Part shown: positions 53,808-58,303 of the stretch, in pieces | How the letters are laid out: every line of letters starts with the position of its first letter | Position numbering within the stretch: position 1 is the stretch's first letter | Assembly: GCF_902859745.1 (NCBI RefSeq) | Contig: NZ_CADIJW010000020.1 | Span: 1-64,000, forward strand | Reading direction: 5' to 3' | DNA: 64,000 bases | From: Achromobacter dolens | GTDB lineage: Bacteria > Pseudomonadota > Gammaproteobacteria > Burkholderiales > Burkholderiaceae_B | Program-made: the position numbers and the translations under genes | Notes under the pieces: model-generated | The model's database searches: none | Told to the model about the DNA's origin: nothing | Seen by the model: only the letters and a program-made list of their open reading frames with translations

Positions 53808-54041
53808 GATGCTCTGAAATTGGAATGCGGGACGTTATGCCGGGCAGTATGCGCAAGCCATCGTCGAATTTTCATCAAATGCCCTGGCTATAAGACTGGT
53901 CGCATTCCGGCGATTCTAGGCAGCGTGGCCGGCAGAGATATAAAGTCGCGTAAATCTCTGTCCCCGATTTGTTAAGAGACGTGAAGCGACGCCTTCCGGG
54001 CGTCGGTAAAATGCGGGAAGTTCTTGTTTTCACAGGGTGTT

Positions 54042-54560
54042 ATGCAATATCGAGTCCGCCCCATGCTGGCCGGCGACGTGGACGCCATCCTCGAAGTCCA
54101 GGCCGGCGCCTATCCGGGGTTCCTCCTGGAAAGCGCTGATTTCTTCCTGAACCGGCTGGCGCTGGCCCCGGCGCACTGCTGGGTGGCGCAAGCCGCCACG
54201 CCGCGGGACGGGCTGCTGGGCTATCTGGTTTCGTATCCGTGGGACGCCGGTCTGCCGCCGACCCTGGATGCGCCGCTGACCACGCTGCCGGAGCCCGCCG
54301 ACCACTGGTTCCTGCACGACTGCGCCGTGGCGCCCTCGGCGCAGGGCCTGGGCGTGGGCCAGGCCCTGCTGCGCACCGCGGCCGGGCGCGCCACGCAGGC
54401 GGGCCTGCGACGCGCCAGCCTGGTGTCGCTGGGCTCGGCCGTGGGTTATTGGCTGCGTCATGGCTATGCGCCGGTCGCCGGCGGCGGCCGCGATCTGGCC
54501 GCCAAGCTCGAGGGCTATGGCCCGCAGGCCAGTTACATGGCGCGCGCCTTTCCGTTCTGA
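54042..54560 (+). CDS. GNAT family N-acetyltransferase
   Basis: A 172-residue acyltransferase. The acetyl-CoA-binding motif A is VAPSAQGLGVGQALLRTA (near residues 101-118), with the following strand LVSLGSAVGYWLRHGY as motif B. The substrate is unknown. AGGGTG lies just before the ATG at 54042; an upstream TTG start is less likely. A TAAAAT -10-like element precedes it. gltS starts 66 bp later. Confidence 0.87.
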   Translation: MQYRVRPMLAGDVDAILEVQAGAYPGFLLESADFFLNRLALAPAHCWVAQAATPRDGLLGYLVSYPWDAGLPPTLDAPLTTLPEPADHWFLHDCAVAPSAQGLGVGQALLRTAAGRATQAGLRRASLVSLGSAVGYWLRHGYAPVAGGGRDLAAKLEGYGPQASYMARAFPF

Positions 54561-54626
54561 CCTCCCCCGGGGGGCCACGCGCGCCCGCCTCTCTCGTCCG
54601 TTGCCCCGCGAGGCACGAAGGTTTCC

Positions 54627-55835
54627 ATGATTTCACTCTCGCCCGTCCAATCCCTGCTGGCCTGCTGCCTGGTGCTGGCCATCGGCCGCGTCCTGACCAC
54701 CCGCATCGGCGTGCTGGCGCGCTACAGCATCCCGGACCCAATCGTCGGCGGTCTGCTGTTCGCGATCGGCGCCTACGCGCTATCGACCTGGGGCGGCCAC
54801 GCCGTGTCCCTGGAAACCAGCATCAAACCGACCCTGTTGCTGCTGTTCTTCGGCTGCATCGGCCTGACGGCGAACCTGAAGCTGCTGGCCAAGGGCGGCC
54901 CGCGGCTGATCGCCTTCCTGCTGGCGTTGATCCCCTTCCTGGTGCTGCAGAACGCGGTCGGGCTGGGCATGGCCTGGCTGCTCGACATGCATCCGCTGAT
55001 GGGGCTGCTGGGCGGCACCATCACACTGGTCGGCGGCCACGGCACGGGCGCGGCCTACGCCACCCGTTTTGCCGACGTCAACAATATCCAGGACGTCATG
55101 GCGCTGGCCATGACGGCGGCGACCATCGGCCTGGTGCTGGGCGGCGTGGTCGGCGGCCCCGTGGCGGAATGGCTGATGCGCCGCCACAAGCTGGCCGGCA
55201 GCCTGGATCGCCGCGCGACGGCGGGCCACGAGGCGCCCGACCTGACCGGGGCGCAACCGCCATCGACGGCGGCCTCGTTCATCACCTCGATGACCGCCGC
55301 CTTCGTCTGCCTGGTGGCGGGCGGCTACCTGGCCACGCTGGTGGAGGGCGCGCCGGTCAGCCTGCCCAATTTCCTCTGGTGCCTGGCGACCGGCGTGCTG
55401 ATCCGCAACGGCGGCGAGCGGCTGGGCCTGAAGCTGGATGACCGCGCCACCGAGATCATCGGCACCATCACGCTGTCGCTGTTCCTGGCCATGACGATGA
55501 TGACGCTGGACCTGGGCAGCGTGGCGCGGCTGGCCGGGCCGCTCGCGCTGATCCTGGCGGTGCAGACGCTGTTCTGCGCGCTGTATTCGGCCTGGGTGGT
55601 GTTCCGCCTGCTCAGGAGCGACTACGAGGCCGCCATCATGTCGGCCGCGTTCTGCGGCTTTTCGCTGGGCGCCACCGCCACCGCCATCGCCAACATGCAG
55701 GCGCTGACGCGGCGCCACGGCCCCGCGCCGCAGGCCTTCATCGTGGTGCCGGTGACGGGCGCGTTCCTGGTGGACATCCTCAACGTGATCGTCCTGACCT
55801 CGTTGATCTCCCTGCCGTTCGTGGGAGGGATGTGA
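54627..55835 (+). CDS. gltS: Sodium/glutamate symporter GltS (ESS family)
   Basis: A 402-residue inner-membrane symporter with about ten hydrophobic segments. The two reentrant-loop GGHGT-type motifs of the family appear as GGHGTGAAYATRF (near residue 135) and the related GFSLGATATAIANMQAL (near residue 350). It imports glutamate with sodium in known members. The following gene, for a TAXI-type substrate-binding lipoprotein, starts only 2 nt after its stop, which is unusual for a binding-protein-independent carrier. Confidence 0.93.
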   Translation: MISLSPVQSLLACCLVLAIGRVLTTRIGVLARYSIPDPIVGGLLFAIGAYALSTWGGHAVSLETSIKPTLLLLFFGCIGLTANLKLLAKGGPRLIAFLLALIPFLVLQNAVGLGMAWLLDMHPLMGLLGGTITLVGGHGTGAAYATRFADVNNIQDVMALAMTAATIGLVLGGVVGGPVAEWLMRRHKLAGSLDRRATAGHEAPDLTGAQPPSTAASFITSMTAAFVCLVAGGYLATLVEGAPVSLPNFLWCLATGVLIRNGGERLGLKLDDRATEIIGTITLSLFLAMTMMTLDLGSVARLAGPLALILAVQTLFCALYSAWVVFRLLRSDYEAAIMSAAFCGFSLGATATAIANMQALTRRHGPAPQAFIVVPVTGAFLVDILNVIVLTSLISLPFVGGM

Positions 55836-55837
55836 TC

Positions 55838-57334
55838 ATGCTCAAGCGCTTCTTCCTGCTGGCCCTGTGCCTGCTCCTGGCCGCCTGCGGCCGCGCCCCC
55901 GACGTCGATACGCTGCGCGCCGATGTCGAACGCGGCCTGGCCGCCACCTATGGCGCGGACCTGTTCCGCATCGATGAAATCAAGCGCATGGGGTCCGCCG
56001 CCGACAGCAATGCGCCGGCCGGCGAGACCCGCCGCGTGGTCTATTACGACCTGCGGCTGGAAGTGACGCGCGACATCGCGCTGGGCGCCTGGGACCAGCC
56101 TGGGGCCGCCGCGCTGGTGACGCTGCTGGGCGCGGGCCCGCGCAGTATCAGCGGTGTGAAATCCAGCGGCAACCAGGCCGGCGACCGGATCGTTGCGCAT
56201 GCCAGCGCCATCTACCGCAAAGCGGGCGAGGCCTGGGAGCTGGTGACGCCCGCCGGCTTCAAGGCCGCCGAAGCGCCCTCGCTCGATACCGGCGCGCCGC
56301 CGCCCGTGACGCAGCGGCTGCTCGAAACGCTGGACCAGATCACTCATTCGGTCGCCTACAGCGCCTCCAGCACGGCGCAGCACGTGGTGCAGCAGGAACT
56401 GGAGCGCTCCGTCGCCCGCATCAACGGCCGGCTGGCGCGCATGCAGCAAGGCTATCCGCTGGCCGGCGGCCCCGACCGCGGCGAGTACGTCACCTTCGCG
56501 CGGGCGCTGGGCGCGGTGGGCCAGGCGCGCCAGATCCGCGTCACGCCGCTGATCACCGGCGGCGGCGCCGAAAACATCGCCCTGCTGCGCAGCGGCGACG
56601 CCGTGGTCGGGCTGGCCCAGGCCGACACCGCCAAACTGGCGTACGAGGGCCGCGGCCCGTTCGCCTCGCAAGGTCCGTTCGCCGGCCTGCGCGCGCTGGG
56701 CAGCCTCTATCCCGAAATGGTGCATATCGTCGTGCGCGACGACGCCAGCCTGCGCGGCGTGCGCGACCTGAAAGGCAGGAAGATCGCGCTCGGCGCGGAG
56801 GGTTCGGCGGTGCGGGCCACGCTGGAGGCGGTGCTGGCGGCGCATGGCCTGCAGGCCGGACGCGACTACGAGGCGATTCCCACGCCTTTCACCGCCTCGC
56901 TGCCGGCGCTCAATGCCGGCGCGATCGATGCCGCGGCGCAGGTGATCGGCATTCCCGCCACGCCCCTGCGCGACGCGTTGACCCAGGCGCACCTGAAACT
57001 GCTGCCGCTCGATCCGGCCGCGGTCAAGGCGCTGGCCGCGCAGGACAACGGGCTGATGCCGCTGGAGATCCCGGCGGGCACCTATCCGAACCAGCCCGAC
57101 CCGGTCGCCACCATCGGCACCGCGGCGCTGCTGCTGACCACCTCGGCGCTGACCCGCGACGAAGCCCTGCAGGTGGTACGGGCGGTCTACCAGACCGGGC
57201 AGGACCTGCTGGCGGCCGGCTCGGCCCAGGGCGCCCAGGTAAACATCGCCAACGCCCGGCGCGGCCTGACCGTGCCGCTGCACGACGGCGCGGAAGAAGG
57301 CCTGGCCGCGCTGGAGAATGCCAAACCCCGCTGA
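55838..57334 (+). CDS. TAXI-family substrate-binding lipoprotein with an extra N-terminal region
   Basis: A 498-residue lipoprotein; the lipobox LLLAAC puts the lipidated residue at Cys17. Residues about 20-200 have no recognised domain and include a probable helix (QHVVQQELERSVARINGRLARM). A TAXI-type TRAP solute-binding domain starts near residue 204 (GYPLAGGPDRGEYVTFARALG) and continues through SGDAVVGLAQADTA, LKGRKIALGAEGSAVRATLEAVL and LNAGAIDAAAQ. ATG at 55838 has GGGAGGG upstream. No TRAP membrane subunits are present; the partner appears to be GltS. Confidence 0.88.
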   Translation: MLKRFFLLALCLLLAACGRAPDVDTLRADVERGLAATYGADLFRIDEIKRMGSAADSNAPAGETRRVVYYDLRLEVTRDIALGAWDQPGAAALVTLLGAGPRSISGVKSSGNQAGDRIVAHASAIYRKAGEAWELVTPAGFKAAEAPSLDTGAPPPVTQRLLETLDQITHSVAYSASSTAQHVVQQELERSVARINGRLARMQQGYPLAGGPDRGEYVTFARALGAVGQARQIRVTPLITGGGAENIALLRSGDAVVGLAQADTAKLAYEGRGPFASQGPFAGLRALGSLYPEMVHIVVRDDASLRGVRDLKGRKIALGAEGSAVRATLEAVLAAHGLQAGRDYEAIPTPFTASLPALNAGAIDAAAQVIGIPATPLRDALTQAHLKLLPLDPAAVKALAAQDNGLMPLEIPAGTYPNQPDPVATIGTAALLLTTSALTRDEALQVVRAVYQTGQDLLAAGSAQGAQVNIANARRGLTVPLHDGAEEGLAALENAKPR

Positions 57335-57376
57335 CGGCGCTTGCGCTTATGATGGCGCTCCCAATCAGGAATATCC

Positions 57377-57640
57377 ATGAACAAATTCGATCTGCAAAAG
57401 AACCAGGCGCTGAAACTGGCCGGCCAACTCAAGCAAGCCGGCACGCCCGACCGTTTCGGCGCCGCCTCGCAGGCGCCCGACCGCCGTGAACAGCGCAAGC
57501 TCGACCAGGCCGCCGGCCTGGTGCCGTTTCCGCTGAAGCTGTCGCAGGCCCAGGCGGACCAGTTGCGCGCGGCGGCCGCCGAACGCGGCCTGAGCACCAA
57601 CGACATCATCGCCGAGGCCTTGCAGAAGGCCCTGGGCTGA
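57377..57640 (+). CDS. Hypothetical small protein
   Basis: An 87-residue polar protein rich in Ala, Gln and Lys. Its C-terminal half ([33 protein letters not shown]) resembles a ribbon-helix-helix-like or helical dimer segment. Family not recognised. Its stop overlaps the start of the DUF188 gene (TGATG), so the two are translated together. Confidence 0.75.
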
Positions 57641-58107
57641 TGCATATCTGGGTCGACGCCGACGCCTGCCCCGGGGTCATCAAGGACATCCTGTTCCGCG
57701 CCGCGCAGCGCTGGCAGGTGCCCCTGACCCTGGTGGCGAACCAGGCGCTGCATACGCCGCCCTCCCCGCTGATACGCGCGGTGCAGGTGCCGCGCGGCTT
57801 CGACGTGGCCGATGCCTACATCGCCGAACGCGCGGCGGCCGGCGACCTGGTGATCACGGGCGACATCCCGCTGGCGGCGCAGGTACTTGAAAAAGGCGCC
57901 ATGGCGCTGAACCCGCGCGGCGAACGCTATTCGCTGGAGACCATCCGCGAACGGCTGGCCCTGCGGGACATGATGGAGGAATTGCGCGCGAGCGGCGTGG
58001 ACACGGGCGGACCGTCTTCGTTCAGCCAGGCGGACCGCAAGGCCTTCGCCAACCAGCTCGACACGCTGCTGGCGCGCGCGGCGCGGCTGGCCGCGCCCAA
58101 GGCCTGA
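57640..58107 (+). CDS. YaiI/YqxD family protein (DUF188)
   Basis: A 155-residue protein of the conserved UPF0178 family, with [18 protein letters not shown] at the N-terminus and [25 protein letters not shown] in the middle; acidic residues suggest a PIN-like nuclease fold. Function not established. Start ATG at 57640 overlaps the previous stop. Confidence 0.88.
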
Positions 58108-58135
58108 ACCGCGCAGGACCACGCGCCCGGCGGCG

Positions 58136-58303
58136 TCAATAGAACGTGATGTACGCCTTGTAGATGATGGTGCCGATGGCCGTGATGAGGCCGATGCCCA
58201 TCAACCCCATGCCGATGTTGCGGTCGCGCAATCCAAACCCGAGCAGCATGAGCGCCACGCCCGTGACGATGATGATCAACATGGTGTTGGTGCTGGGGTG
58301 CAT
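58136..58303 (-). CDS. Small membrane protein of 55 residues
   Basis: A minus-strand frame encodes a 55-residue protein beginning MHPSTNTMLIIIVTGVALML and ending KAYITFY. Two hydrophobic helices (about residues 7-24 and 30-48) are separated by a charged turn (LRDRNIG). GGGAG lies 6 nt before the ATG at 58303, and it fits cleanly between the DUF188 gene and the repeat region. It is not a recognised family. Confidence 0.7.
   Translation of the reverse strand: MHPSTNTMLIIIVTGVALMLLGFGLRDRNIGMGLMGIGLITAIGTIIYKAYITFY

What the first reader, a model, noticed from the sequence alone, without database searches (positions are those of the whole stretch)
54627..57334. GltS symporter translationally coupled to a TAXI-type binding lipoprotein
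The gltS stop is 2 nt from the start of a TAXI-family substrate-binding protein that carries a lipobox. TAXI proteins are known as partners of TRAP membrane subunits, and none is present here; GltS is known as a binding-protein-independent secondary carrier. The pair suggests a binding-protein-assisted form of GltS. I infer this only from adjacency and coupling.
Basis: partly seen in the sequence, partly recalled or inferred. Interest (0 to 1): 0.72.

Follow-up and report, generated by a model that had tools for sequence, protein, structure and literature searches.

The report
Glutamate carrier with its own scoop
Two adjoining genes in this Achromobacter-like genome appear to make a membrane glutamate carrier and a tethered glutamate-catching protein that feeds it, an arrangement already described in the whooping-cough bacterium in 2025, although uptake by the pair has not yet been measured.

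Summary
gltS (54627-55835) is followed after 2 nt by a TAXI-type lipoprotein gene (ATG 55838-57334), with a ribosome-binding site inside the end of gltS and no TRAP permease gene on the contig. That paper says the functional coupling still needs experimental proof. The window's proteins are 78% (GltS) and 68% (TAXI) identical to a locus that shows BP0403's printed features, and keep its two tested glutamate contacts. My census: 32 of 124 Pseudomonadota gltS loci have the TAXI gene, and these 32 are exactly one clade of the GltS tree; 66 of 75 named TAXI loci have gltS directly upstream. One thing I did not see in the parts of the paper I read: five GltS residues (Asp120, His122, Tyr144, Asn153, Gln155) occur together in every readable GltS beside an elongated TAXI (32 of 32; 65 of 65 named) and in none of 130 other GltS-type sequences. 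They are candidates for the docking site. Verdict: a member of a described system; transport dependence undemonstrated.

The parts
54627..55835 (+). gltS, Na+/glutamate symporter of the ESS family, 402 aa; carries the five-residue fingerprint Asp120, His122, Tyr144, Asn153, Gln155
   Evidence: TIGR00210 387 bits over cut-off 311; PF03616 E 7.8e-110; only gltS found in the genome; fingerprint
55824..55829 (+). GGAGGG, probable ribosome-binding site of the lipoprotein gene, inside the last codons of gltS (Gly-Gly)
   Evidence: read directly; the motif class is in the last 15 nt of 28 of 32 linked and 1 of 92 unlinked gltS genes
55838..57334 (+). elongated TAXI-family substrate-binding lipoprotein, 498 aa (alternative GTG start at 55832 overlapping the gltS stop)
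   Evidence: TIGR02122 202 bits over cut-off 84; 68% identical to the B. pertussis-type protein of L105; model mean pLDDT 81, pTM 0.63
55838..55888 (+). lipoprotein signal peptide and lipobox LAAC, lipidated Cys17 (lipidation inferred)
   Evidence: sequence; Cys aligned in 31 of 32 linked homologues, the 32nd (L108) cropped by my script and showing LSAC
55889..56248 (+). N-terminal alpha/beta domain (residues 18-137), no Pfam match; boundary carried over from BP0403
   Evidence: 82 of 120 aligned residues identical to L105; domain HMM in 32 of 32 linked regions, 0 of 92 unlinked, 66 of 66 named elongated loci, 0 of the other 9; modelled as helices and strands at 23-135
56249..56452 (+). helical, proposed dimerisation domain (residues 138-205), with Leu199 equivalent to BP0403 Leu201
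   Evidence: 57 of 68 aligned residues identical to L105; modelled helices 157-171 and 178-204, stretches 139-162 and 171-175 under pLDDT 50; role of Leu201 from PMC12344293
56453..57331 (+). TAXI substrate-binding domain; Tyr217 and Gln261 are the equivalents of the glutamate-contact residues Tyr219 and Gln263 of BP0403

Best explanation
The two genes encode the parts of a binding-protein-assisted secondary glutamate transporter, the TAXI-GltS system. The lipoprotein is anchored to the outer face of the inner membrane, probably as a dimer held by its helical middle domain. Its C-terminal TAXI domain captures L-glutamate at sub-micromolar concentration. It docks on the GltS dimer, possibly through its extra N-terminal domain and the GltS fingerprint residues, and hands the glutamate over. 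GltS then carries it inward with Na+ by an elevator movement. Translation of the lipoprotein is coupled to that of gltS. Shown here: gene content, coupling geometry, domain content and TAXI fold (model), conserved ligand residues, and the exclusive association on the GltS tree with its fingerprint. Shown in print for the orthologue: L-glutamate binding, dimerisation and the effect of the key residues. Inferred: docking, hand-over, Na+ coupling and elevator motion in this pair, and dependence of uptake on the lipoprotein.
For: Family assignments. Orthology: L105 shows the printed features of BP0403 (503 aa, the printed signal peptide from residue 2 on with a GTG first codon, Tyr219, Gln263, Leu201), and the window is 68% (TAXI) and 78% (GltS) identical to it with the three residues kept. 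L-glutamate Kd 180 nM, dimer and AlphaFold 3 complex in PMC12344293. 32 of 124 Pseudomonadota gltS loci have the TAXI gene, all on the same strand just downstream. In the tree of 124 the 32 are exactly one side of a branch (SH-aLRT 92); in a bootstrapped tree of 102 rows a set of 32 linked rows and nothing else has support 96/90. 66 of 75 named TAXI loci have gltS upstream, and those 66 are the ones with the N-terminal domain. No TRAP permease by phmmer in 124 gltS regions, against 5 of 8 conventional TAXI loci without gltS. Other neighbours recur in only 24-25 of the 66. Fingerprint Asp120/His122/Tyr144/Asn153/Gln155: 32 of 32 linked, 0 of 92 unlinked, 65 of 65 readable named loci, and in L327 of another clade.
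Against: No uptake measurement exists in what I read; the paper states that coupling needs experimental verification. GltS works without a binding protein in other bacteria, so dependence cannot be assumed. Linkage could reflect a shared need for glutamate rather than contact. In the four Kinetoplastibacterium-type genomes the key glutamine is proline, so the ligand may differ there. GltS beside conventional TAXI in Bacillota lacks the fingerprint, so it does not mark TAXI partnership in general. My model is of the lipoprotein alone; no model of GltS or of the complex was obtained.
Confidence: 0.86

Rival explanations
1. GltS and the lipoprotein are two independent functions kept in one operon. 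GltS transports glutamate alone, while the TAXI lipoprotein is a periplasmic glutamate sensor or buffer, or serves another membrane partner.
For: Most sampled GltS have no TAXI neighbour: 92 of 124. Co-expression alone would also favour linkage.
Against: One-to-one matching of TAXI linkage with one GltS clade, a GltS fingerprint that follows the elongated TAXI even into another clade, ribosome-binding sites inside gltS, TAXI directly upstream of gltS in 6 Bacillota genomes, and published TAXI-GltS fusions (PMC12344293; not re-found by me).
Confidence: 0.09
2. The TAXI lipoprotein is an orphan TRAP receptor that feeds the TRAP permease encoded elsewhere in the same genome.
For: The genome has nine DctM matches, one of them next to a conventional TAXI gene on contig C29.
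Against: That permease already has its own conventional TAXI (C29:5583-6527 beside C29:3674-5023). phmmer finds no such permease in 124 gltS regions. The extra N-terminal domain occurs only beside gltS in my sets: 66 of 66 elongated named loci, 0 of the other 9.
Confidence: 0.03
3. The pair is chance synteny inherited within Achromobacter and relatives.
For: 25 of the 66 named linked loci are titled Achromobacter.
Against: The flanking GNAT, ribbon-helix-helix and YaiI genes were found in only 24, 25 and 25 of the 66, all of them Achromobacter, while gltS is in 66 of 66. The pair persists in Cupriavidus, Pseudomonas, Pigmentiphaga, alpha- and deltaproteobacterial MAGs and 0.8-Mb genomes.
Confidence: 0.01

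Closest known systems
TAXI-GltS system of Bordetella pertussis, BP0402/BP0403 (PMC12344293, Commun Biol 2025)
   Same: Gene order, coupling, lipobox, elongated three-part TAXI protein, glutamate-contact residues Tyr219/Gln263 and interface Leu201 (Tyr217/Gln261/Leu199 here), no TRAP genes beside the pair
   Different: 32% (TAXI) and 22% (GltS) of aligned residues differ from L105, my stand-in for it; no biochemical data on the window's proteins in what I read
TAXI-TRAP binding proteins, e.g. VcGluP of Vibrio cholerae (PMC11574862, passages read; PDB 8s4j)
   Different: Conventional size, without the extra domains; works with a fused TRAP membrane protein rather than GltS (from the papers)
GltS without a TAXI partner (ESS family, TCDB 2.A.27; E. 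coli GltS is the known example, recalled and from PMC12344293)
   Same: Same symporter family, NCBIfam TIGR00210
   Different: No TAXI within reach in 92 of 124 loci; lacks the fingerprint, e.g. Trp 67 or Phe 21 of 92 at Tyr144 and Gly 83 of 92 at Asn153
TAXI-GltS fusion proteins of Lachnospiraceae (reported in PMC12344293)
   Same: Same two modules in one polypeptide
   Different: TAXI at the N-terminus of GltS; the window has separate genes in the opposite order. No fused frame among the Bacillota matches

Membership tests
TAXI-GltS system (BP0402/BP0403 type) | ESS-family gltS gene | tested here: met
   TIGR00210 387 bits, cut-off 311
TAXI-GltS system (BP0402/BP0403 type) | adjacent TAXI-family binding protein, coupled in translation | tested here: met
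   TIGR02122 202 bits; 2-nt gap, overlapping GTG, ribosome-binding site inside gltS. Coupling itself is inferred from geometry.
TAXI-GltS system (BP0402/BP0403 type) | lipoprotein signal and elongated architecture (N-terminal domain, helical domain, TAXI domain) | tested here: met
   LAAC lipobox; 82/120, 57/68 and 189/292 aligned residues identical in the three published segments; model with alpha/beta 23-135, helices 157-204 (partly under pLDDT 50) and TAXI fold 197-496
TAXI-GltS system (BP0402/BP0403 type) | glutamate-contact residues Tyr219 and Gln263 | tested here: met
   Tyr217 and Gln261 in the window; Tyr in 32 of 32 and Gln in 28 of 32 linked homologues, the window included
TAXI-GltS system (BP0402/BP0403 type) | no TRAP membrane component with the gene pair | tested here: met
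   no DctM match on contig C20; none by phmmer in the window or 124 gltS regions
TAXI-GltS system (BP0402/BP0403 type) | L-glutamate binding and dimerisation | not testable with these tools
   shown for BP0403 (PMC12344293)
TAXI-GltS system (BP0402/BP0403 type) | glutamate uptake through GltS assisted by the binding protein | not testable with these tools
   stated as needing verification for BP0403 too
TAXI-TRAP transporter | TRAP membrane component encoded with the TAXI protein | tested here: not met
   no DctM match on contig C20; none in the window

The most novel reading that the evidence does not exclude
GltS proteins that work with an elongated TAXI receptor form a separate, receptor-dependent kind that can be told from the GltS sequence alone. 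The five residues Asp120, His122, Tyr144, Asn153 and Gln155 shape the docking or hand-over site, and four of them were acquired again in a second GltS lineage (L327) that took on an elongated TAXI. GltS carriers thus acquired TAXI receptors at least three times, and in the trypanosomatid endosymbionts the receptor has since changed ligand.
Probability: 0.4. Interest if true: 0.65.

Novelty: already known. Interest (0 to 1): 0.4.

Why it matters
By the 2025 paper's account, TRAP and TT transporters were the only secondary carriers known to use a soluble binding protein before. TAXI-GltS would be another, and would let the question of what makes an elevator carrier able to accept a binding protein be tested by comparison. 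The census adds a concrete handle: a GltS clade matched one-to-one with the receptor, and five residues that predicted the elongated receptor without exception in the sets examined. For the window alone the gain is a correct annotation.

Tried and rejected
Considered and rejected: TRAP orphan receptor, chance synteny, independent operon mates (see rivals). Published fusions: no fused frame among the Bacillota matches (open frames up to 526 aa for full-length ones), so the fusions are cited from the paper only. No sigma-70-like promoter or terminator-like site in 53900-58300, which says little at this G+C. The fold look barely tested the model before residue 197, so nothing is said of relatives of the N-terminal domain beyond the PilO likeness reported in PMC12344293. 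The GltS model was never accepted, so the fingerprint residues are not placed in space or relative to the membrane.

Mistakes corrected: one search aligned a wrong frame of L105 and was ignored. Searches used the TRAP protein in a wrong frame or strand; only one search is used. The lipobox pattern picked an upstream Cys in some rows; one search replaces it.

Rows dropped before the counts: two pieces of a broken gltS in G055, the fragment in G094 and five matches under 30 bits (G004, G046, G076, G099, G108), two fragments in G441 and the weak or partial matches in G347, G428 and G468. Eleven top-scoring loci (L047-L057) were searched with about 1.5 kb flanks or less, the rest with up to 3 kb. 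Four of the 124 regions have a flank under 1400 nt; in L084 only 34 nt are visible downstream, so its 'unlinked' label is unsure. Of the 41 genomes with a match, 16 are over the cut-off; of the 25 below it, 8 were fetched and 17 were not. Several of the Bacillota and Desulfobacterota regions are cut on one side by the contig end (L308, L320, L322, L324, L325). In the trees near-copies were left out, also long-branch rows. From the seven full-length matches other than G521 were examined with 1.5 kb flanks; three partial ones were not. Named loci overlap the census genomes in part (for example L111 and L214), so the two sets are not independent.

They raised the best explanation from 0.85 to 0.86, lowered one rival from 0.1 to 0.09, and raised the novel case from 0.35 to 0.4 (interest if true 0.6 to 0.65) and the interest from 0.35 to 0.4, because of the fingerprint.

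Full report

It is already in print. A full-text search for gltS with TAXI returned 6 papers, one of them on this very arrangement: Jaques et al., Commun Biol 2025, PMC12344293, of which I read the outline and abstract, whole-text parts 1-3 of 7, and sections 17 and 18. It describes BP0403 of Bordetella pertussis as a lipoprotein of three parts, dimeric through a helical middle domain, whose isolated TAXI domain binds L-glutamate with Kd 180 nM (Tyr219Ala and Gln263Ala weaken binding 167- and 250-fold). The gene follows gltS with translational coupling and has no TRAP gene beside it. The paper also reports conventional TAXI genes next to gltS and TAXI-GltS fusions in Lachnospiraceae, and states that functional coupling still needs experimental proof. 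Searches for 'BP0403' and 'TAXI-GltS' each found only this paper. A search for later work listed 10 papers (listing only), none of whose titles or abstract starts reports uptake by such a pair.

The window pair is the same system. That it is the B. pertussis complex is my inference. Against L105 the window lipoprotein is 68% identical (338 of 497) and GltS 78% (312 of 400). The three published segments align with 82 of 120, 57 of 68 and 189 of 292 identities, and the three residues are Tyr217, Gln261 and Leu199.

Own genome. One gltS was found. Two TAXI proteins exceed the cut-off: the window's, and a conventional one on contig C29 beside its own TRAP permease. The genome's other TAXI is thus already paired.

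Census in Pseudomonadota. gltS was sought in 121 genomes of the family (58 with a match) and 398 of the phylum (62 with a match). I took 124 regions: 60 from the family, 52 plus 11 top-scoring loci from the phylum, and the window. A TAXI gene lies within reach in 32 of 124, always on the same strand just downstream, and all 32 carry the extra N-terminal domain, which is in none of the 92 others. In 31 of 32 an in-frame ATG or GTG lies from -4 to +14 nt of the gltS stop; L090 is the exception. A purine-rich motif sits in the last 15 nt of gltS in 28 of 32 linked and 1 of 92 unlinked genes. phmmer found no TRAP permease in the 124. One unlinked region, L084, shows only 34 nt downstream.

Tree. 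On a GltS tree of 124 rows the 32 linked rows are exactly one side of one branch (SH-aLRT 92). In a bootstrapped tree of 102 rows a set of 32 rows, all linked (31 of these plus L328), has support 96/90. No sampled member of that clade lacks the TAXI gene.

Fingerprint. Asp120, His122, Tyr144, Asn153 and Gln155 were picked from the comparison of 32 linked with 92 unlinked GltS. All five are present in 32 of 32 linked and 0 of 92 unlinked rows, and in 65 of 65 readable named loci with an elongated TAXI (L202 is cut short; the named loci overlap the census in part, and include L253, the same locus as L327). They are in none of 27 further regions outside the two elongated ones, L327 and L328, nor in seven loci of the phylum of G521 or four more Bacillota loci: 0 of 130 in all. 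These 130 include weak matches and the six Bacillota GltS with a conventional TAXI, so the fingerprint marks the elongated receptor, not TAXI in general. L327, a deltaproteobacterial MAG whose GltS falls with L153, L149 and L155 (100/96), has all five, while those three unlinked kin share only Tyr144. Of their genomes, G127 has one conventional TAXI about 11 kb away and G456 and G438 have none. Holding the 33 elongated-linked rows as one clade is disfavoured but not strongly (AU p 0.029). Convergence, local gene conversion or loss in the L153 group could each explain this.

Named loci. A scan of genome contigs with an alignment of six elongated TAXI proteins matched 207 stretches, 96 of them relatives, of which the best 80 gave 75 loci. 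In 66 gltS lies directly upstream, and these 66 are the ones with the N-terminal domain; the helical domain is recognised in 65, not in L253. In 63 of the 66 a start lies from -4 to +14 nt; L215, L226 and L253 are the exceptions. The other nine are one contig-edge fragment (L257) and eight conventional TAXI genes, five of which have a TRAP permease within reach; L256 and L262 lie near contig ends and L263 shows none. As a synteny control the window's GNAT, ribbon-helix-helix and YaiI neighbours were found in 24, 25 and 25 of the 66, all Achromobacter. The scan favours relatives of the query, so these are not frequencies.

Other phyla. In the phylum of the Thermosyntropha genome (I call it Bacillota; 398 genomes, 41 with a match) 3 of 25 fetched gltS-like regions have a conventional TAXI directly upstream of gltS. 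Three more such loci came from two family searches, where L333 had no TAXI within 1.5 kb. In the phylum of a Desulfobacterales MAG, 2 of 297 genomes had a full gltS and neither showed a TAXI, one of them cut off just downstream. In the phylum of G521, seven further full-length matches showed none. Linkage needs three changes on the tree; well-supported branches force three, and the bootstrap range is 3 to 3. Three recruitments is the simplest reading; losses or transfer are not excluded.

How it most likely works. The lipoprotein catches periplasmic glutamate, docks on the GltS dimer and passes it on; GltS imports it with Na+. Binding and dimerisation are shown for the orthologue; docking, hand-over and dependence are inferred. 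Against a uniform glutamate role, Gln263 is Pro in the four 0.8-Mb, 30-33% G+C genomes of genus g7, one of which (L111) lies on a contig of the same length as a named Candidatus Kinetoplastibacterium crithidii contig (L214). In VcGluP the equivalent Gln contacts the ligand's amino group (PMC11574862, passages only), so a ligand change there is plausible.

Verdict. What remains open is the uptake experiment; the GltS fingerprint gives it a sharper target.

Noticed in passing
A paper search for Kinetoplastibacterium with glutamate and symporter found none.
   Followed up: partly
L309, L310, L314, L332, L334, L347: In six Bacillota genomes a conventional-size TAXI gene lies directly upstream of gltS, the reverse order of the window, as in the published fusions; their GltS lack the fingerprint.
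   Followed up: partly
L327 (= L253): A deltaproteobacterial MAG pairs an elongated TAXI with a GltS of a different clade that nevertheless carries all five fingerprint residues; its nearest unlinked kin have only one of them.
   Followed up: partly
window 57377-57640 and 57640-58107: Small ribbon-helix-helix-like protein overlapping by one base with a YaiI/YqxD (DUF188) protein; found beside the pair only in the Achromobacter loci.
   Followed up: partly
G000:C29:3674-6527: The same genome holds a standard TAXI-TRAP pair on another contig, a useful internal control.
   Followed up: yes
G518, G519, G520, G522: The four genomes of conventional TAXI loci that were searched have no gltS match.
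   Followed up: no
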